From the NCBI GenBank assembly GCA_947632515.1, contig CANRPO010000004.1:1-64000 (forward strand): DNA of 64,000 nucleotides, read 5' to 3'. Under the pieces are notes generated by a model. The model saw only the letters and a list, made by a program, of their open reading frames with translations. It made no database searches and was not told where the DNA came from. The translations under genes were made by a program, and so were the position numbers. Positions 53,932-63,023 of the stretch are shown one piece after another; the stretch's first letter is position 1, and the number at the start of each line of letters is the position of its first letter. Source of the stretch: an uncultured Lachnospiraceae bacterium. Its GTDB lineage: Bacteria; Bacillota; Clostridia; Lachnospirales; Lachnospiraceae.

Positions 53932-54043
53932 TGCTTGCACAACAGCAAATTCTCCTAGAAAACATTGACATCGCACTATAAACTTTATATGATAAAAGAG
54001 TTCATTAGTTGCTTATTCTTATTCTGTAACAATATCCATTGCA

Positions 54044-54152
54044 GTCAAATACCCTACGGCAAGCTACGGGTATGACTTACTTAGCGTTCCTCGCGGCAGT
54101 CGCCAAATGACGTGCAAGCACGTCCGCTTGGCTCGTTGCCCGCGGGAATAAA
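54044..54152 (+). repeat. Repeat family A, copy 3 (shorter, diverged)
   Basis: This 109-bp copy keeps the ends (TCAAATACCC and CGCGGGAATAAA), the CGCGGCA-TCGCCAAATG block and the GCAAGC core, but the first hairpin is shortened. It lies between the RADAR promoter region and the plus-strand gene at 54177. Confidence 0.8.
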
Positions 54153-54176
54153 GCACAAATATATGAGGGATCAGAT

Positions 54177-54992
54177 ATGTCCGTAGTAGATGAGATCAGA
54201 GAAGAACAGAAAAAAGCGCTGAGTACCATGACTTTCCGGGAAAAGCTCTCCTATTTCTGGTACTATTACAAGATCCACACCGCCGTCATACTGGCAGTGC
54301 TCGCTTTCGCGATCCTCTTTATCTACCAGTATGTGACCAACAAGGACTACGGTTTCTATGCCGCCTTCGTCAACGCGGGGCTGACCTATGAGAATTCTGA
54401 ACTGTCCACGGCGTGGGCGGAGGAATTTCAGGAGTACGCGCAGATCGATCCCGACGAATATCAGGTGTACTTCGACACTTCCATCGCGCTCTCTCAGGAC
54501 ATGGGTTCCCAGTATGCCATCTCCAATCAGGAAAAAATGCTGGCCATGATGCAGGCGGGCATGGTCCACGCGATCGTGGCCGAGACGGAAACCTTCGAGA
54601 AATACGCGCAAAACGAGTATTTCTATGACTTGGAAACGCTCTTCTCCGAGGAGGAACTGGCGAAATACGGCGCGTACTTCTACTACACGGATGCCGCCAC
54701 CTTCGTGGACGGAACTGACGACACCTTCTACGCGGAGGACGAGCAGACCAACCCGGCCGATCTTGTGATCGATCACCGCGATCCCGCCTCCATGGAAGAT
54801 CCTGTGGCTGTCGGCATCATCCTCACGGAGGGCAACCGCCTGGCGGACGCAGGCTACTACGACTATCTGACAGATTCTGAGTACGACTATCAGGGCTATC
54901 CCGCCGACATCGTCCTTGGCATCCCCGTCACAAACAAAGATCCGGAGCTTGCGGTCCGGTTTCTGGAATTTATCGGGCTTGGAGATTCCTAA
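54177..54992 (+). CDS. Single-pass membrane protein of unknown function
   Basis: The 271-residue protein has a cytoplasmic N-terminus (MSVVDEIREEQKKALSTMTF), one membrane helix at ~38-53 (AVILAVLAFAILFIYQYV) and an acidic, Tyr-rich outer domain of ~210 residues. The outer domain contains QAGMVHAIVAETETFEKYAQ and ends DPELAVRFLEFIG, loosely like a solute-binding fold. No Cys lipobox. I do not recognise the family. It is on the plus strand between the RADAR island and the acylation genes. Confidence 0.75.
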   Translation: MSVVDEIREEQKKALSTMTFREKLSYFWYYYKIHTAVILAVLAFAILFIYQYVTNKDYGFYAAFVNAGLTYENSELSTAWAEEFQEYAQIDPDEYQVYFDTSIALSQDMGSQYAISNQEKMLAMMQAGMVHAIVAETETFEKYAQNEYFYDLETLFSEEELAKYGAYFYYTDAATFVDGTDDTFYAEDEQTNPADLVIDHRDPASMEDPVAVGIILTEGNRLADAGYYDYLTDSEYDYQGYPADIVLGIPVTNKDPELAVRFLEFIGLGDS

Positions 54993-55006
54993 AATATACC
55001 GGACGC

Positions 55007-56140
55007 TTACTCCACCGTTCTGCTGTCCGGTTCTTCAAAGACCAACCCGCTATACGCATGATCCAGCAATGCGTTTAATTTATCAATGTGAATGTACTCG
55101 ATAATCTTTGAATCCTTTTCAATCATATCCCGAACCATATATGCGTAAGTGACTTCGCTCCCATGAAAACCATCTATAAAATATTCGTCTGTCAGTCCTA
55201 ATTCTGCACCGTCAGCATAATCATAATACTCAAACCCATATTTCTTAAACAGTTTCTCACACACCGGAGTGATCTCTCCCATATAACCGTAATTTCCGCT
55301 TTTTTGCATCTGCGCAAAAATACCGGGCGGGAAAGGCGCAAGATAGCCAATAACATAGATGTTGTTTTCTTCACAATATCTCAACAGGTCATTCAGCTTT
55401 TTTACCGTGTCCTGATCGATATGTTCTCCATATTGAAATCTGCTATCGCCTGCAGCGATCCTCTCTCTCGTATCTGTAAAATCAAAATCTTCCCTGCTTT
55501 TCATAGTCCTGTATGTATCCCCATAATAATATGAGCCATCATACATAAAGCCATCATCTTTGATTTTCCCACGAAACCCAATATTATTGGCATAGCTGTC
55601 GCGTAAATCCGTCCACGTCCACAGGCCATCCATAAAATCTGTGATCATCGCTTTAACCATGGCCAACGTTTTCCTGTCCGCCTTTTGTATTGGCACAAAC
55701 GTATCATACGCAACACACCACTTATTCCATTCGTCATTAAACACCCATGAATCCAAATCCAAAAGCATCGCCTTCGGTTTATAGGAAAGATTTTGTAAAA
55801 AATTCAAATATTCATCATAATTTCCCGATACTGCTCCGCCGCAATTATAGAATCCGCCTTTAAAATAAACGCTTTTAAACTGCATGGCGCGGCTCGTTCC
55901 CAATGCGATCATATCAGCCTGATAATAATCTGCGTTTTTCAACTTGTAATATTGATTCTGTTCATTATACGCATATCCAAGCAGAATAGAGTGATCCCTG
56001 CGCTGCGCCTCTATGGCTGCATCCATATCCCGTCCCCATTCTCCGCTATATACTCCGACTCCATAAAAGGCGCCTAGCGCTCCCGCAAAAATCAGAATCG
56101 GCAGCGCGTACACAAATATATGTATCAAGAACTTCTTCAT
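55007..56140 (-). CDS. SGNH/DltD-like extracytoplasmic partner of an MBOAT acyltransferase
   Basis: The 377-residue protein has one N-terminal membrane helix (~5-30) and an outer SGNH-type domain. ALGTSRAMQF holds the candidate catalytic Ser83, and DGFHGSEV holds Asp323 and His326. This layout matches DltD/AlgX-like proteins that pass acyl groups to surface polymers together with an MBOAT membrane protein. It starts 18 bp after the MBOAT stop behind GGGAAGGG, so they form one operon. Confidence 0.82.
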   Translation of the reverse strand: MKKFLIHIFVYALPILIFAGALGAFYGVGVYSGEWGRDMDAAIEAQRRDHSILLGYAYNEQNQYYKLKNADYYQADMIALGTSRAMQFKSVYFKGGFYNCGGAVSGNYDEYLNFLQNLSYKPKAMLLDLDSWVFNDEWNKWCVAYDTFVPIQKADRKTLAMVKAMITDFMDGLWTWTDLRDSYANNIGFRGKIKDDGFMYDGSYYYGDTYRTMKSREDFDFTDTRERIAAGDSRFQYGEHIDQDTVKKLNDLLRYCEENNIYVIGYLAPFPPGIFAQMQKSGNYGYMGEITPVCEKLFKKYGFEYYDYADGAELGLTDEYFIDGFHGSEVTYAYMVRDMIEKDSKIIEYIHIDKLNALLDHAYSGLVFEEPDSRTVE

Positions 56141-56158
56141 AAGTTTTCCCTTCCCTCA

Positions 56159-57595
56159 TCAAAATTGAAAATAGACGAACCCATTTGTTCCGGCGCTATA
56201 AAACAATCCCCACACTATAAAAATCACCAGCATATATCCCGCCAATATTCTGAATACCTTATGGTATTTTTCTATTTTTACCAAAACGTCGCCCGCAAGC
56301 GAACAATAATCATACAGCGCGACAACCGCGATCAAACACAAAATGATCAGCAAGTCTTTTTCACTCAATCCAACTGAATTTTGAAAATAGAGACCCGGTT
56401 CAAAAATATGATCAAATATATGTCGTATTACATAAAATGCGTCTGCAACAGATTCGGCTCTGAAAAAAATCCATGCAAAGTTGCAAAACGCAAAGACACA
56501 TAATGTCAGCATGATTTTTCCCGCCCTGCTGCCTCTCATTTTCTGTAATATCCCCTTACACGACTCTTCCACTATTTGCGCTGCTCCATGAATACCTCCC
56601 CACACTACAAACGTCCAATTTGCTCCATGCCACAGCCCGCTTACTAAAAATGTTACAATTAAATTAAAATAGTGCCTTATTCTGGAACATCGGTTTCCTC
56701 CTAAGGGTATATAGACGTAATCTTTAAACCATGTAGACAGTGAAATATGCCATCTGCTCCAATACTCTCTGATAGACGCGGAAAAATACGGGCTCTTAAA
56801 ATTTTCCATGAGTTTAATTCCCATCATCTCAGCCGCCCCCAGAGCAATATCCGAATAGCCGGAAAAATCACAATATATTTGTATCGTAAACAAAAAAACG
56901 GCAATCGCCAAATCAAAGCCTGTATGCGAAGTCAATGACTCATACACTGCATCCACATAAATAGCGCAGACATCAGCTACCGCGATTTTTTTAAAATATC
57001 CCCATAGCATGCGCCTGATTCCATGCATGGCGGTATCATAATCAAAGCGTTTCTCGCTTTTAATCTGCGGTAAAAGATTTTCTGTTCTCTCTATCGGGCC
57101 CGCTACCAGCTGCGGAAAAAAGGAAATAAATGCGGCATATATTCCCAAATTTCGTTCTGCTTTTACCTTTCCTCTATAAACATCGATCATATAGCTCATT
57201 GTCTGAAACGTATAAAAAGAAATACCTACCGGCAATAATACATTTACCATAAGAGGATCTATTTTGATGGAACAGGCTGAAAGAACAGACGCGACCGCAT
57301 TGCCCAAAAAATTGAAATATTTAAAAAACGTGAGCACGCAAATGCAAGTGACAACCCCTAACATCAAAACAATACGCCGACACATTCTATCCCGGCATTT
57401 TTCTATAAGCAATGCAGCTGCATACGATACGATCGTCGTAAAAACGATAAGCACAATATATTTCGCATTCCAACTCATATAGAAAAAATAGCTTGCCAAC
57501 AACAGAAATATCCACCGATATTTATGCGGTAAAATCCAGTATAATATAAATACAACTGTGAAAAATGCGGCAAATGCTAAAGAATTGAACAGCAT
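56159..57595 (-). CDS. MBOAT family O-acyltransferase (AlgI/DltB-like)
   Basis: The 478-residue membrane protein has about ten helices and the MBOAT motifs: FFPQLVAGPIER (~159-170), YCDFSGYSDIALG (241-253), REYWSRWHISLSTWF (276-290) and SGLWHGANWTF with catalytic His323. Such proteins move acyl groups across the membrane for O-acetylation of polysaccharides or D-alanylation. Its Shine-Dalgarno GGAGG lies inside a hairpin-forming inverted repeat at 57598-57632, and no promoter now points into it. See the invertible element. Confidence 0.9.
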   Translation of the reverse strand: MLFNSLAFAAFFTVVFILYWILPHKYRWIFLLLASYFFYMSWNAKYIVLIVFTTIVSYAAALLIEKCRDRMCRRIVLMLGVVTCICVLTFFKYFNFLGNAVASVLSACSIKIDPLMVNVLLPVGISFYTFQTMSYMIDVYRGKVKAERNLGIYAAFISFFPQLVAGPIERTENLLPQIKSEKRFDYDTAMHGIRRMLWGYFKKIAVADVCAIYVDAVYESLTSHTGFDLAIAVFLFTIQIYCDFSGYSDIALGAAEMMGIKLMENFKSPYFSASIREYWSRWHISLSTWFKDYVYIPLGGNRCSRIRHYFNLIVTFLVSGLWHGANWTFVVWGGIHGAAQIVEESCKGILQKMRGSRAGKIMLTLCVFAFCNFAWIFFRAESVADAFYVIRHIFDHIFEPGLYFQNSVGLSEKDLLIILCLIAVVALYDYCSLAGDVLVKIEKYHKVFRILAGYMLVIFIVWGLFYSAGTNGFVYFQF

Positions 57596-57597
57596 TT

Positions 57598-57632
57598 TTG
57601 ACCTCCAAAAAGTGTACTTTTTTGGAGGTCAA
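57598..57632. repeat. Left recombination-like site (IRL) of an invertible segment
   Basis: A 35-bp palindromic site with arms TTGACCTCCAAAAAG and CTTTTTTGGAGGTCAA. Its core AAAAAGTGTACTTTTTT matches, in inverted orientation, the core at 57765-57784. The asymmetric GTGTAC centre here faces GTACAC there, which sets opposite polarity. It abuts the MBOAT start codon. Confidence 0.8.
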
Positions 57633-57710
57633 TAAGCTGCCTTCCAAGATATATTTATGAGCCGGATTATAATTCTTCTATAACTGAAATGTATAATATT
57701 ATAGCCAATG

Positions 57711-57738
57711 TTGACAAATCTCTCCCGTATGCTATATT
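57711..57738 (+). promoter_or_regulatory. Extended -10 promoter inside the invertible segment (OFF orientation)
   Basis: TTGACA (57711-57716), 16 bp, then TGC-TATATT (-10 at 57733-57738 with an extended TGn). It points to the plus strand, into the 3' end of the recombinase gene and away from MBOAT. Confidence 0.75.
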
Positions 57739-57762
57739 TAATAGGAATTACTACATATATAA

Positions 57763-57786
57763 AACAAAAAAGTACACTTTTTTGTT
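57763..57786. repeat. Right recombination-like site (IRR) of the invertible segment
   Basis: ACAAAAAAGTACACTTTTTTGT, palindromic except for the central asymmetry, eight bases beyond the recombinase stop. Its reverse complement differs from IRL in the core by one A. Confidence 0.8.
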
Positions 57787-57793
57787 GATCCGG

Positions 57794-58405
57794 TCACCCG
57801 GATAACTGTTCAAAACCGTTTGCTTTATAGCGGAACGTCGAAACCGGCATCCCGCATACTTCAGCGGCATGGGCAGTTGAAATGTTTTTATCTTTCCATT
57901 GTCGATAAATATCCCAAAAATTGTCCGGCAACGGTTGCGAAGGTCGTCCAAACTTCACTCCTCTCGCTTTTGCCGCCGCTATACCTTCCGCCTGCCGTTG
58001 ATGAATTGTCTGAAATTCCGTTTCAGCCACATAAGAAAGAAGGGAAAGTACCAGATCGCTGATGAATGTCCCCAACAAATTTTTTTCCTTTCTGGTATCA
58101 AGAATCGGCATATCGATAACGACAACATCCGCGCCTTTTTCCTTGGTGATGATTCTCCACTGATTACTCAATTCCATATAATTCCTTCCCAGACGGTCAA
58201 TAGACTTGATATACAATACCGTATTTTCATCCACTTTTCGGAGCATTTTTCTATATTGCGGTCTTTCAAAATTTTTCCCGGAAAACTTATCTACAAATAT
58301 GTTTTCTCTGGGTACACCCGCCTCAAGCAGTGAAAGTACCTGCCGATCTTCATTTTGTGTCAATGAACTGACACGCGCATATCCTATCCGCTTTGATTTT
58401 TCCAT
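57794..58405 (-). CDS. Serine recombinase (invertase/resolvase family)
   Basis: A 203-residue serine recombinase. RIGYARVSSLTQNEDRQ has the catalytic Ser near residue 13; KFSGKNFERPQYRKML, YIKSIDRLGRNY (catalytic Arg motif) and LLSYVAETEFQTIHQRQAEG complete the catalytic domain. A C-terminal helix-turn-helix (GRPSQPLP, STAHAAEVCGMPVSTFRYK) binds DNA. Size and layout match small invertases such as Hin, Gin and Mpi. AAGGAG lies 11 bases before the ATG. The two inverted sites next to its stop codon are the obvious targets. Confidence 0.92.
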   Translation of the reverse strand: MEKSKRIGYARVSSLTQNEDRQVLSLLEAGVPRENIFVDKFSGKNFERPQYRKMLRKVDENTVLYIKSIDRLGRNYMELSNQWRIITKEKGADVVVIDMPILDTRKEKNLLGTFISDLVLSLLSYVAETEFQTIHQRQAEGIAAAKARGVKFGRPSQPLPDNFWDIYRQWKDKNISTAHAAEVCGMPVSTFRYKANGFEQLSG

Positions 58406-58534
58406 TTAACATTTCGCTCCTTTTCGCCTTTATTATATTAAAAATATCGCCGCCAAATACAGTGTCCATCTTCTCTCCCCTGTATCAAGCGACGATATTC
58501 TACTATACACAGATACATCCCGCCAACGATCCTG

Positions 58535-60064
58535 TCAGAACTTCACGACCAGAATGCCCTTGACGATCTGAATGGAGCCGTCGTCCGGGTAAGACGGCAT
58601 GTTCACCACCTCCGGCAGATCGGCGACTTCCTCCTCTCCTACCAGATTGGGACGATAACCGCACCATATCTCCACAAAGCGCAGCCAGTTATTGTCATTG
58701 AGATACTCGCCCACGCCATCATAGGGCGCACTGACAATATCGCTCAGCTCTCCTATCTCATACAGCGCTTTATCCTGTATCTCCCGCGCATCGATAAACG
58801 CAACGGGCATTTCGTCCGTATAGCCGTCCGCACTTTTGATCTGCGTGATCAGCGTCGTGAAATAACTGATTGCCTGTTGCTGCGAAAAAGTTGCTTTTAA
58901 ATAACAGATATTGTCATATCTGCAAAACATGAGATTCAGGAAAAGCAGCAGCGCACAGCAGACCGCAGTCAGAATCTTTTCCGCATCGGCGCGCCGCAGC
59001 CGCACCCTGTCGATCAGCCATGCCGCCAGGACAAAGGGCATCAGTTCCGCATACACCATCAGCGAATGCACTTTGTCGGGATCTGCCATGACATAGATAA
59101 AATTGACCGCCAGCGGAACGGTCAGAAAAAGGAGCGTCAAAACCGCAGCCGCGCATTTACCGGTCCGAAATCTGCGGATAACCAGAACCGACGCCAGCGC
59201 AAAACCGACCGCGACCATGACAGCGTATACAAATTTTATATTGGCAAAGTACGCGTCCTGTAACTGCGGCCTGAAAAACTCCCTGTAAGCGATCCCTGCC
59301 CGGGCAACATACTGTATGAAGGGCGTTTTTGTCATGCTCCCCACATCCATGTACTCTGACAGTTCTACATCCTGCGCCTCCAGACAGATCTGATTCACAA
59401 CAAAATAAAACAGTATAAAAGCCGCTGCCGCTATCGCGACCCGCCCCGTTTTTTTCCACCAGCTCCGCAGATCGTCTTCCCTGTCCAGGCGTTCGATGCA
59501 GGAAAACAGCATGACGCATAATATCAGCGGGATAAACGCCTGATAGATCCCAACAGAACATCCCATCAGGACGACCCCAGCTGCCGCCGTCCGCCAGCCG
59601 GAATATTTACAGATCAGATATGCGCCCGACACGCCCATCAACAGCGCAGCCATATAGAAATGCACCGTGAACATATAGCCGAACATGCTGGTGACCACAG
59701 GAAAACAAGTCATGATCCCGCCCACAAAGATGCACAAGATCTCATTTTCCATACGCAGCAGATCCACGATCAGACAGGCGGCGCAGGCGATACAGACAAT
59801 GGAGAAAAGGCCGTTGACGACGGGCAGGCTGTAATGTCCCATGCCATATATTTTTGATTCTATCGTCTCCAATACGCCCAGCATCCATCTTCCCAGATCA
59901 TAGGTATGCCCCACCTCAAACAGCCTTTTCATATCGTCATGGTACGAGAACTTATTGAACATCCCCATGCCCTGAGAAACGATCCCGAAAATGACCGCGC
60001 TTAAGAAAGTGAGCCGATATTGTATTTTTATCTTTTTCCAGCGCTCCTCCGGCTTTATCTCCAT
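58535..60064 (-). CDS. Glucosyltransferase-domain (GtrII-like) membrane protein
   Basis: The 509-residue protein has about ten or eleven membrane helices. After the first helix comes FNKFSYHDDMKRLFEVGHTY, a loop with the Asp-Asp pair of GtrII-type glucosyltransferases, then DLGRWMLGVLE. The C-terminal ~130 residues are outside the membrane. Such enzymes add sugars to surface polymers from a lipid-linked donor. It stands alone on the strand between the recombinase and gatB. It is part of the surface-modification block. Confidence 0.82.
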   Translation of the reverse strand: MEIKPEERWKKIKIQYRLTFLSAVIFGIVSQGMGMFNKFSYHDDMKRLFEVGHTYDLGRWMLGVLETIESKIYGMGHYSLPVVNGLFSIVCIACAACLIVDLLRMENEILCIFVGGIMTCFPVVTSMFGYMFTVHFYMAALLMGVSGAYLICKYSGWRTAAAGVVLMGCSVGIYQAFIPLILCVMLFSCIERLDREDDLRSWWKKTGRVAIAAAAFILFYFVVNQICLEAQDVELSEYMDVGSMTKTPFIQYVARAGIAYREFFRPQLQDAYFANIKFVYAVMVAVGFALASVLVIRRFRTGKCAAAVLTLLFLTVPLAVNFIYVMADPDKVHSLMVYAELMPFVLAAWLIDRVRLRRADAEKILTAVCCALLLFLNLMFCRYDNICYLKATFSQQQAISYFTTLITQIKSADGYTDEMPVAFIDAREIQDKALYEIGELSDIVSAPYDGVGEYLNDNNWLRFVEIWCGYRPNLVGEEEVADLPEVVNMPSYPDDGSIQIVKGILVVKF

Positions 60065-60122
60065 ATACCTATTGAAAGCTCTCCTTTCAAACGGTGCTCC
60101 GACCCACGTCTTATTGAGGCCG

Positions 60123-61556
60123 TCACAGCAACTCCTTCAACATTTGATTCACCATGGCGGGATCGGCCTTGCCCTTCATGGCCTTCATGGTCTGTCCCAC
60201 CAGAAATCCGATGGCCTTCTCCTTGCCGTTGTGATAATCTTCCACGGACCGGGGATTTTCGGCGATAACCTTCTCAATGACGCCCCGCAGCGCCCCCTCG
60301 TCGTTTACCGTCTTTAACCCTTTCTCCTCCACATACTTCTCCGGGTCCACGTTCTCCTCGAACATCGCCTCGAAGACTTCCTTGGCCACGGAGCTGTTGA
60401 TCGCCTTGGAATCCGTCAGCGCGACCAGTTTCGCCAGATTCTCCGGCGAGAAACGCAGATCCTCCGCCTCGATCTCTCTCTCTTTCATCAGGCGCAGCGT
60501 CTCCCCCATCAGCCAGTTGGAGACTTTCTTGGGCTGCCCGCAGAGCGCCGTGGCCGCCTCGAAAAGATCCGCCATATGCTTGGAACCCGTGATGATCTCA
60601 ATATCATAATCGGGAATGTCGAACTCCTCCTTGTAGCGCTTCATCTTCTCGGTCCTGAACTCCGGCTGTTTCGCCCTGATCTCGTCCAGCATCTCGTCGC
60701 TCACCGCCACGGGTACCAGATCAGGATCGGGGAAATAGCGGTAATCCTGCGCGTCCTCCTTACTGCGCATGGCGTAGGACTCGCCCTTTACGTCGTCCCA
60801 TCTTCTCGTCTCCTGCACGACTTTTTCCCCGGACTCGATGAGATCGATCTGCCGCTGCGTCTCCCCCTCGATGGCTCTGGCGATGGCCTTGAAGGAATTG
60901 AGATTCTTCATCTCGGTCCTTGTGCCGAACTCTTTGGCGCCAACCTCGCGCACGGACAGATTGACGTCGGCGCGCATGGAACCCTCCTGCAGCTTACAGT
61001 CGGAGGCGCCCAGATACTGGATGAGCAGGCGCAGTTTCTCAAGGTAAGCTATGACCTCCTCCGCAGAGCGCATATCCGGCTCCGACACGATCTCGATGAG
61101 CGGCACGCCGGAACGGTTATAGTCCACCAGAGAGCAGTCCTCCCAGTCGTCGTGGATCAGCTTGCCCGCGTCCTCCTCCATATGGATCTCGTGAATGCCG
61201 ACGATCTTCACGCCGCCCTCCTCCGTCTCGATCTCCACGCCGCCGTTTCTGCAGATCGGCAGATAGAGCTGGGAGATCTGATAGTTCTGCGGGTTATCGG
61301 GGTAAAAGTAGTTCTTCCTGTCGAACTTCGCATAGCGGGTGATCTCACAGTTGGTGGCAAGTCCCACCGCGATGGCGTACTCCAGAACCTGTCTGTTCAG
61401 CACAGGCAGAGAGCCGGGCATTCCCGTACACACCGGACATGTCTGTGTGTTCGGCTCCGCGCCGAAAGCGGTGGAACAGCCGCAGAAGATCTTCGTCTTG
61501 GTGGCCAGTTCCACATGCACCTCCAGACCGATGACTGTCTCGTATTCTGTCGCCAT
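60123..61556 (-). CDS. gatB: Asp-tRNA(Asn)/Glu-tRNA(Gln) amidotransferase subunit B
   Basis: The 477-residue GatB binds the mischarged tRNA and phosphorylates the acyl group. Motifs: VIGLEVHVELATKTKIFCGC, CPVCTGMPGSLPVLN, DRKNYFYPDNPQNYQISQ, EDAGKLIHDD, NRSGVPLIEIVSEPDMRS and the C-terminal tail domain with FLVGQTMKAMKGKADP. The ATG abuts the gatA stop (TAAATG), with AAAGGAGG upstream. Confidence 0.97.
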   Translation of the reverse strand: MATEYETVIGLEVHVELATKTKIFCGCSTAFGAEPNTQTCPVCTGMPGSLPVLNRQVLEYAIAVGLATNCEITRYAKFDRKNYFYPDNPQNYQISQLYLPICRNGGVEIETEEGGVKIVGIHEIHMEEDAGKLIHDDWEDCSLVDYNRSGVPLIEIVSEPDMRSAEEVIAYLEKLRLLIQYLGASDCKLQEGSMRADVNLSVREVGAKEFGTRTEMKNLNSFKAIARAIEGETQRQIDLIESGEKVVQETRRWDDVKGESYAMRSKEDAQDYRYFPDPDLVPVAVSDEMLDEIRAKQPEFRTEKMKRYKEEFDIPDYDIEIITGSKHMADLFEAATALCGQPKKVSNWLMGETLRLMKEREIEAEDLRFSPENLAKLVALTDSKAINSSVAKEVFEAMFEENVDPEKYVEEKGLKTVNDEGALRGVIEKVIAENPRSVEDYHNGKEKAIGFLVGQTMKAMKGKADPAMVNQMLKELL

Positions 61557-63023
61557 TTAGCCCACCTCCTTTTCCGCAGTCGGGAACGCGCCCCGCGCTC
61601 TCTCATAAGTATATGCCGCCCGGATCAGTTTCTTCTCCTGAAAACAATCCCCGATCAGCTGCAGGCCGATAGGAAGACCGTTTCTGTCAGTCCCGCAGGG
61701 CAGGCTGATACCCGGCAGCCCCGCCAGATTCACGGCGATGGTGTAGATGTCGCCGAGATACATCTTAATGGGGTCTGCAAGGCTGGAGCCCAGCCTGGGG
61801 GCTGTGGTGGGCGCCACCGGGCCTAAGATCACGTCGTATTTCGCAAACGCCTCGTCGAACGCCTTCTTGATCAGCGCCTTGACCCGCAGCGCCTTCAGAT
61901 AATAGGCGTCGTAGTAGCCGGAACTCAGCACGAAAGAACCCAGCATAATGCGGCGTTTCACTTCCTCACCGAATCCCTCCGAGCGGGATTTCTTGTACAT
62001 GTTGTGCAGTCCCGCATACTCTTTCGTGCGGTAGCCGTACTTGATGCCGTCAAACCGCTCCAGATTGGAGCTGGCCTCCGCCGCGGCGATTGTGTAGTAG
62101 GTGGGGATCGCGTACTCCACCAGACTCAAATCAAAGCGCTCCACCACGGCGCCTTTATCCTCCAGCGTCTTCGCCGCCGCCAGCACCGCCTCCTTCACCT
62201 CGCCGTCCAGTCCGTCCCCAAAGTAATCGTTAGGAATGCCGATGCGCATTCCCTTCACGTCGTCGATCAGCGCCGCCGTAAAGTCCGTGTCCTGCCTCTC
62301 TATGGAAGTGGAATCTTTCTCGTCGTGGGAGGCGATAACCTCCAGCACTGCGGCGCAGTCGGTCACATCCCTGGTGAGCGGCCCGATCTGATCCAGCGAA
62401 GAGCCGTAGGCGATCAGCCCGTAGCGGGACACCGTGCCGTAGGTCGGTTTCATCCCCACCGTGCCGCAGTAGGACGCGGGCTGTCTGATGGAACCGCCCG
62501 TGTCGGAGCCAAGCGCATAAAAGCACTCCTTCGCCGCCACTGCGGCCGCCGAACCTCCCGAGGAACCGCCCGGCACATGCTCCGTATTCCAAGGATTTTT
62601 CGTCACCCCGTAGGCGGAAGTCTCCGTAGTGGAACCCATGGCGAACTCATCCATGTTCGTCTTCCCCAAAAGCACCGCCCCCGCCTTCTGCAGATTCCGC
62701 ACCGCCTCCGCCGTGTAGGTCGGCACGAAATTGTACAGTATTTTGGAAGAACAGGTGGTGAGCAGCCCCGCCGTGCACATATTGTCCTTAATCGCTACGG
62801 GCACGCCCGCCAGTCTGCCCGTAAGCTCACCCGCCTCGATCTTCGCCTGCACCGCTCTCGCCTGCGCCAGCGCGCCCTCCGCGTCTACCGTCACATAACA
62901 GTTGTAGAGCTTATCCTGCTCCTCTATGCGTTCCAGCATGGCCTCTGCAGCGTCCACAGCGGTGGTCTTTCCCTCCCTGATCGCAGCCGCCAGCTCCGCC
63001 GCCGTCATATCTATGATACTCAT
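61557..63023 (-). CDS. gatA: Asp-tRNA(Asn)/Glu-tRNA(Gln) amidotransferase subunit A
   Basis: The 488-residue amidase-signature enzyme releases ammonia from glutamine or asparagine. The Ser-cisSer-Lys triad is visible: VAIKDNMCTAG (Lys near 80), PGGSSGGSAAAVA (cis-Ser) and LGSDTGGSIRQPAS (nucleophile Ser). The C-terminal part has LGPVAPTTAPRLG and LPCGTDRNGLPIGLQLIG. GAGGAG precedes the ATG. gatC lies 18 bp upstream. Confidence 0.97.
   Translation of the reverse strand: MSIIDMTAAELAAAIREGKTTAVDAAEAMLERIEEQDKLYNCYVTVDAEGALAQARAVQAKIEAGELTGRLAGVPVAIKDNMCTAGLLTTCSSKILYNFVPTYTAEAVRNLQKAGAVLLGKTNMDEFAMGSTTETSAYGVTKNPWNTEHVPGGSSGGSAAAVAAKECFYALGSDTGGSIRQPASYCGTVGMKPTYGTVSRYGLIAYGSSLDQIGPLTRDVTDCAAVLEVIASHDEKDSTSIERQDTDFTAALIDDVKGMRIGIPNDYFGDGLDGEVKEAVLAAAKTLEDKGAVVERFDLSLVEYAIPTYYTIAAAEASSNLERFDGIKYGYRTKEYAGLHNMYKKSRSEGFGEEVKRRIMLGSFVLSSGYYDAYYLKALRVKALIKKAFDEAFAKYDVILGPVAPTTAPRLGSSLADPIKMYLGDIYTIAVNLAGLPGISLPCGTDRNGLPIGLQLIGDCFQEKKLIRAAYTYERARGAFPTAEKEVG

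What the first reader, a model, noticed from the sequence alone, without database searches (positions are those of the whole stretch)
57598..57786. Invertible promoter next to a serine recombinase, controlling a surface acylation operon
Two ~20-35 bp sites with near-identical cores (AAAAA(A)GTGTACTTTTTT) lie in opposite orientation at 57598-57632 and 57763-57786, directly between the MBOAT start codon and the stop of a Hin/Mpi-type serine recombinase. The ~130 bp between them hold TTGACA-16 bp-TGCTATATT, a strong extended -10 promoter that now points away from MBOAT. Inversion would aim it at MBOAT with a leader of about 55 nt. I infer ON/OFF phase variation of polysaccharide O-acylation; this copy is OFF. 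Invertible promoters run by serine recombinases are known in Bacteroides (Mpi); I know of none described for this gene pair.
Basis: partly seen in the sequence, partly recalled or inferred. Interest (0 to 1): 0.93.

Follow-up and report, generated by a model that had tools for sequence, protein, structure and literature searches.

The report
Self-flipping promoter for surface acylation genes
In a bacterium that is likely of the Lachnospiraceae, a short DNA segment with a strong predicted promoter lies between two mirror-image sites, with a recombinase gene on one side and a two-gene operon that probably acylates a surface polymer on the other; the segment is predicted to flip and switch that operon on, and two sister switches with relatives of the same recombinase are seen in opposite orientations in different species.

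The parts
57794..58405 (-). Small serine recombinase, 203 aa (predicted invertase); YARVSS catalytic block with Ser13, DRLGR at 70-74, HTH-like C-terminus
   Evidence: PF00239 2.8e-27; Sin 2r0q 87 bits, Ser13 aligned with chain position 9; motif positions; the catalytic role of the residues and the HTH reading are recalled knowledge
57763..57786 (.). Recombinase-proximal site (arm 57765-57782, central AC 57774-57775), 11-bp palindromic halves
57600..57630 (.). MBOAT-proximal site (arm 57607-57624, central GT 57614-57615) embedded in a longer palindrome GACCTCC...GGAGGTC
57625..57764 (.). Stretch of 140 bp between the arms, predicted to invert
   Evidence: inversion seen only in sister loci
57711..57738 (+). 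Extended -10 promoter TTGACA-16-TATATT (the 16-nt spacer ends in TGC), pointing away from MBOAT and antisense into the recombinase gene
57666..57695 (-). Weaker promoter-like pair TATACA-18-TATAAT pointing towards MBOAT in the present orientation
   Evidence: 6 such sites found in the region, 3.7 expected
57618..57639 (-). Anti-start arm: antisense copy of the MBOAT Shine-Dalgarno/start region at the inner end of the segment (CAGCTTATTGACCTCCAAAAA on the MBOAT strand)
57602..57606 (-). MBOAT Shine-Dalgarno GGAGG, hidden in the hairpin in the present orientation
56159..57595 (-). MBOAT O-acyltransferase, 478 aa
   Evidence: PF03062 1.1e-28; TIGR04091 (DltB) 159 bits, below its cut-off of 375
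55007..56140 (-). SGNH-fold partner, 377 aa, N-terminal helix, invariant S83/R84 and D323/H326
58535..60064 (-). GtrII-like glucosyltransferase upstream, 129 nt before the recombinase; neighbour, not shown to be controlled
   Evidence: PF14264 2.8e-59

Best explanation
A 140-bp segment with one strong predicted promoter lies between two inverted 18-bp sites next to a serine recombinase gene; the recombinase is predicted to flip it, which would turn transcription of an MBOAT-SGNH operon on or off, and that operon likely O-acylates a surface polymer. Shown: the sites, their tight linkage to this recombinase family, the promoter sequence and its direction away from MBOAT, and inversion of the homologous segment between species at two sister switches. 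Inferred: that this recombinase exchanges strands at the GT centre of these two sites; that the promoter is active; that inversion would start an mRNA about 49 nt before the MBOAT start codon; and that the present copy is OFF. Also inferred: the OFF state is locked twice. Besides aiming the promoter away, the present orientation places an antisense copy of the MBOAT start region just upstream, so that any read-through mRNA from the recombinase gene would fold over the Shine-Dalgarno; inversion would swap that arm for an unrelated one and free it.
For: 18/18 arms with inverted GT/AC centres; the longest arm in 100 shuffles was 11 nt. Exact site pairs in 77 congeneric genomes: 17, of which 16 (the window's own included) lie within 42 nt of this recombinase or a relative; reversed-pattern control 0. 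Arm pairs of at least 17 of 22 within 260 nt of the stop codon at 36 of the 59 recombinase copies assessed (60 loci fetched, 2 too short, 1 with two copies). Inverted orthologues: L077 against 8 of 8 others of the GT2 group, and L082 against L086; L077/L081 spacer 154 of 156 reversed, flanks 79.4% and 86.4% collinear. Promoter: 0 of 200 shuffles. Hairpin: -26.6 kcal/mol, z -5.86; Shine-Dalgarno accessibility 0.00 OFF (0 of 200 shuffled interiors as low) and 0.66 ON. Target: MBOAT, SGNH partner. A related MBOAT-SGNH pair, L109, shows no such site; of the 30 best MBOAT loci only this one has the pair.
Against: Only one orientation of this locus is available. Its nearest recombinase relatives (79-84% identical) are proteins without retrievable DNA. 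The inverted pairs belong to recombinases 57-59% identical to this one. A weaker promoter-like sequence points at MBOAT now, so the present state may not be fully OFF. With a fixed 90-nt leader instead of the predicted start site, accessibility in the inverted state is only 0.10, so the double lock depends on the predicted transcription start. The anti-start arm is not a general family trait. At 23 of 59 recombinase copies no such arm pair passed. The acyl group and the polymer are unknown.
Confidence: 0.82

Rival explanations
1. The present orientation is ON or both orientations are active: the weaker promoter-like pair at 57695-57666 drives MBOAT now, and inversion only changes the level.
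For: TATACA-18-TATAAT, 10 of 12 consensus positions, - strand; another pair in the same direction, TTGTCA-18-TACATT, scores 8.3.
Against: That score is 5 units below the outward promoter, which beats all 200 shuffles; 6 promoter-like sites were found in the region against 3.7 expected; the mRNA would carry the closed hairpin over its Shine-Dalgarno.
Confidence: 0.12
2. The sites are operators or a dead relic: the recombinase binds them to regulate itself or MBOAT, or the switch no longer flips.
For: Both sites are palindromes that a dimer could bind; no second orientation of this locus was seen.
Against: Orthologous spacers are inverted between species between the sites; the recombinase reading frame is intact and keeps the YARVSS and DRLGR motifs; the arms remain 18/18 identical.
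Confidence: 0.06
3. Inversion is real, but the main output is the recombinase: the outward promoter makes antisense RNA over the recombinase gene and so stabilises one state, while MBOAT has its own control.
For: The promoter points into the 3' end of the recombinase gene. Among 13 loci with a clear promoter, 11 point away from the target and 2 towards it.
Against: The right-hand site directly adjoins the target's Shine-Dalgarno in the window, and the proposed target start lies within about 110 nt of the site in most loci where one could be called; antisense effects are untested.
Confidence: 0.1

Closest known systems
Mpi-controlled invertible polysaccharide promoters of Bacteroides fragilis
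   Same: Serine recombinase inverts short promoter segments that control surface polysaccharide loci (PMC5903667, passages).
   Different: Mpi acts on at least thirteen scattered regions (PMC5903667); here the exact site pair sits beside its recombinase in 16 of 17 cases. The recombinase fails the Mpi family model (36.3 of 272 bits). The organism is likely a Lachnospiraceae.
Hin/Gin DNA invertases
   Same: Small serine recombinase and inverted sites; for Hin a promoter on the inverted DNA (recalled).
   Different: The gene lies outside the segment (Hin lies within it, PMC5903667 passage); two solved chains named DNA-invertase (Gin, recalled) score 49-50 bits against 87 for Sin; no enhancer or Fis site was looked for.
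Clostridioides difficile flg switch (RecV)
   Same: An inversion upstream of a clostridial surface operon, with an RNA-level lock in the OFF orientation (PMC7446863, passages: Rho terminates OFF mRNA).
   Different: RecV is a tyrosine recombinase (PMC5903667, passages); the flg switch lies in the 5' leader, so the promoter does not flip; the lock there is Rho termination, here a predicted Shine-Dalgarno hairpin.
Phase-variable O-acetylation of the E. coli K1 capsule
   Same: An O-acetyltransferase that modifies a surface polysaccharide is switched at random.
   Different: There by slipped-strand mispairing at repeats (PMC3090145, one passage), not by DNA inversion.
MBOAT-SGNH polymer O-acyltransferases (DltB/DltD, PatA/PatB type)
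   Different: No invertible promoter for such a pair showed in the listings; the MBOAT lies below the DltB cut-off.

Membership tests
Invertible promoter (inverton) | Inverted repeats that bound a promoter-bearing segment upstream of a gene | tested here: met
   promoter predicted from sequence only
Invertible promoter (inverton) | Both orientations of the same locus in a population or between strains | not testable with these tools
   One genome per species, no reads; seen only at sister loci
Small serine recombinase | Resolvase catalytic domain with the YARVSS-type motif and a short C-terminal DNA-binding region | tested here: met
   PF00239; Sin alignment; 203 aa; the C-terminal HTH is read by eye only
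Mpi family (NCBIfam NF009949) | Score above the curated cut-off | tested here: not met
   36.3 bits against 272
Hin/Gin invertases | Fis-bound recombinational enhancer | not tested
   No search for an enhancer was made
MBOAT acyltransferase | Pfam MBOAT above the gathering score | tested here: met
   100.9 bits, cut-off 27
DltB (TIGR04091) | Score above the curated cut-off | tested here: not met
   159 bits against 375
SGNH hydrolase/acyltransferase fold | SGNH fold with conserved Ser and Asp-x-x-His | tested here: met

The most novel reading that the evidence does not exclude
The invertible segment is a two-level switch: besides its promoter it carries an antisense copy of the target's ribosome-binding and start region, so one flip changes both transcription and translation of an acyltransferase operon, and the OFF state silences even read-through mRNA from the recombinase gene. 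It belongs to a widespread family, unnamed in what I searched, of self-contained serine-invertase cassettes of the order, which have settled upstream of unrelated targets (glycosyltransferases, MBOATs, a dynamin-like GTPase, an EcoRI-type methylase, TnpB-like proteins).
Probability: 0.4. Interest if true: 0.78.

Novelty: new variant of a known kind. Interest (0 to 1): 0.62.

Why it matters
If true, a common group of gut-type Clostridia switches surface acylation (recalled in other bacteria to affect recognition by phages, antibodies and antimicrobial peptides) on and off by DNA inversion, with an enzyme of a family found in 113 of 392 sampled genomes of the order. The conserved GTGTAC/GTATAC sites give a ready signature to search reads and metagenomes, and the start-region hairpin would be a way to make an OFF state leak-proof. 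A 2025 survey of a defined gut community found a median of 3 invertons per Clostridia-like genome and linked the one inverton group that is mostly Clostridia in the passages I saw to tyrosine-type enzymes (PMC11892184, passages).

Tried and rejected
Named-genome scan with the recombinase: one 36% hit of no use. Viral contigs by protein: none; by the exact right-hand site: none. Rfam on 54000-62000: none. Terminator scan of 57400-58700: none. A general Shine-Dalgarno lock in the family: rejected. Of the 19 loci given to (of 36; those with a start I could place), accessibility was lower OFF than ON in 15 and not in L068, L072, L084 and L095; only L047, L048 and L054 fall in the lowest 5% of shuffled interiors; 8 of the 19 are one orthologous group and 2 another. 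Direct antisense complementarity: of 33 loci (L091, L098 and L100 dropped before the count), L047 and L095 reached 0 of 500 shuffles, and L051, L058, L086 and L099 had p below 0.03; L095 is complementary in both orientations. Promoter count: 33 of 36 loci used, same three dropped; 14 had p at most 0.05, 13 of these with a clear direction, 11 away and 2 towards, L061 and L063 being near-copies. L091 and L100 lack the core; L098's site lies in or beside the start of its reading frame. L094 (21 of 22, but 320 nt on and another sequence) was left out of the 36. Nulls: shuffled single bases; one search used a home-made shuffle that keeps neighbouring pairs. One search used 10 shuffles per locus and its best shuffles reached 17, so the weakest of the 36 may be chance. 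In the order-wide set the 27 loci fetched were the best matches only; 5 were cut by contig ends and 11 of the other 22 passed. A TnpB-like identity of two targets was followed only to weak model scores.

Full report
Anatomy. All genes run on the - strand: GtrII-like glucosyltransferase (58535-60064), small serine recombinase (57794-58405), the site pair, MBOAT (56159-57595), SGNH-fold protein (55007-56140). The sites are 18/18 reverse-complementary, each a near-palindrome around a central GT (57614-57615) or AC (57774-57775); that inverted orientation predicts inversion, not deletion (established knowledge of serine recombinases). The first arm begins 11 nt after the recombinase stop codon. 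The longest comparable arm in 100 shuffles was 11 nt. One promoter, TTGACA-16-TATATT with an extended TG (57711-57738, + strand), points away from MBOAT and beats 200 of 200 shuffles. A weaker promoter-like pair points the other way.

The family. In 77 congeneric genomes 31, the window's included, hold a recombinase at E 1e-60 or better; in 392 genomes drawn from the order, 113 do, in 59 of 173 genera. Among the best 120 relatives, those with an organism name are from Butyrivibrio, Pseudobutyrivibrio, Oribacterium and [Clostridium] aminophilum; the nearest named relatives of the window's GatB are from Lachnospiraceae bacteria. I fetched 60 loci. Of 59 recombinase copies with enough downstream DNA, 36 show a pair of inverted 22-nt arms with at least 17 matches, starting a median of 13 nt after the stop codon; the core is GTGTAC or GTATAC in 38 of 47 loci, counted together with 11 of the order-wide set (two of the 47 lack any recognised core). 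The threshold of 17 is met by some shuffles, so a few of the weakest may be chance. The tighter test is the exact pattern: GTGTACTTTT, 110-170 nt, AAAAGTACAC occurs 17 times in 77 genomes; 16 of these, the window's included, lie within 42 nt of a recombinase of this family (one of them cut by a contig end). The remaining one (L145) has none in the 1.5 kb on either side, but one lies about 1.6 kb away by its coordinates. The reversed pattern occurs 0 times. The site pair therefore goes with this enzyme.

Inversion. Nine loci share an orthologous glycosyltransferase target. In eight the spacer runs one way, in L077 the other. Between L077 and L081 the spacer is 154 of 156 identical when reversed, while the recombinase side is 79.4% and the target side 86.4% identical in collinear order. 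L082 and L086 form a second inverted pair (local score 98 reversed, 15 forward; 86 of 104 reversed). In L077 the best promoter, TTGAAC-17-TGATAGACT, points at the target; in seven of the other eight the best one points away, and L072 has one each way. This is direct evidence, across species, that relatives of this recombinase invert such segments. These relatives are 57-59% identical to the window's enzyme. For the window's locus itself only one orientation is known.

The RNA-level lock. On the MBOAT strand, the inner end of the segment reads CAGCTTATTGACCTCCAAAAAAGT and the MBOAT start region ACTTTTTGGAGGTCAAAAATGCTG; the two pair almost end to end (alignment). The 58-nt stretch folds at -26.6 kcal/mol, z -5.86, 0 of 200 shuffles as stable; the recombinase-proximal palindrome is much weaker (-11.3, z -2.58). 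In the present orientation the Shine-Dalgarno is buried (accessibility 0.00; 0 of 200 shuffled interiors as low); in the inverted one, with the predicted start 49 nt before ATG, it is 0.66 accessible. With 90 nt of the inverted segment instead it is 0.10, so the claim leans on the predicted start. L048 is similar (0.00 OFF, 0.5% of shuffles; 0.83 ON). It is not a general rule: only 3 of 19 loci are in the lowest 5% of their shuffles. In the OFF state, read-through from the recombinase gene, or RNA from the weaker promoter-like pair, would carry this hairpin (inference). The known parallel is the Rho-mediated OFF lock of the C. difficile flagellar switch (PMC7446863, passages).

Targets elsewhere. 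Ten targets were scanned (each cut at 400 residues): glycosyltransferases 2 (L048, L067) and 11 (L055, whose start is 288 nt from the site), a dynamin-like GTPase (L061), an EcoRI-type adenine methylase (L051), an M48 peptidase (L084) and a DUF6020 protein (L087); L050, L068 and L086 had no Pfam match. L086 resembles TnpB weakly (28.9 bits, cut-off 100). The cassette thus looks like a module with its own enzyme that is placed before varied genes; whether it moves is not shown.

Literature. Nine searches of the held library listed no paper that by title or abstract start deals with a serine-invertase promoter switch in Lachnospiraceae or with an MBOAT pair; one search showed 25 of 34 papers and four of five. 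I read passages of PMC11892184, PMC5903667, PMC11868660, PMC7446863 and PMC3090145 only. The 2019 survey of Jiang and others is not held and its tables may list members, so novelty is claimed only against what was searched. Random switching of capsule O-acetylation by slippage is known in E. coli K1 (PMC3090145, passage).

Verdict.

Noticed in passing
L068, L086 and the start of L082 (targets of sister switches): Targets look TnpB-like (only L086 reaches a model, NF040570 28.9 bits, below its cut-off of 100) but read GIALGM where I recall GIDLG for the RuvC-I aspartate; possibly nuclease-dead, guide-RNA-type proteins behind an invertible promoter, with the L082 and L086 spacers in opposite orientations. 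The L082 target runs off its contig and was judged by its start only.
   Followed up: partly
33 related invertons: Among 13 with a clear promoter, 11 point away from the target and 2 towards it; assemblies may favour OFF, or the antisense promoter over the recombinase gene may stabilise OFF.
   Followed up: partly
L077 and L081 spacers: The inverted spacer is 98.7% identical while the flanks are 79-86% identical; the spacer may have been exchanged recently or be under strong constraint.
   Followed up: no
L061/L063 and L051: The same kind of switch precedes a dynamin-like GTPase and an EcoRI-type adenine methylase, possibly phase-variable defence or methylation.
   Followed up: no
window 58443-60064: GtrII-like glucosyltransferase directly upstream of the recombinase, with an 80% complementary 20-nt inverted pair at 58443-58499 between them.
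   Followed up: no
   Followed up: partly
L145 (G028:C54:46507-46671): The one exact site pair without a recombinase within 1.5 kb; a relative lies about 1.6 kb away on the same contig.
   Followed up: partly
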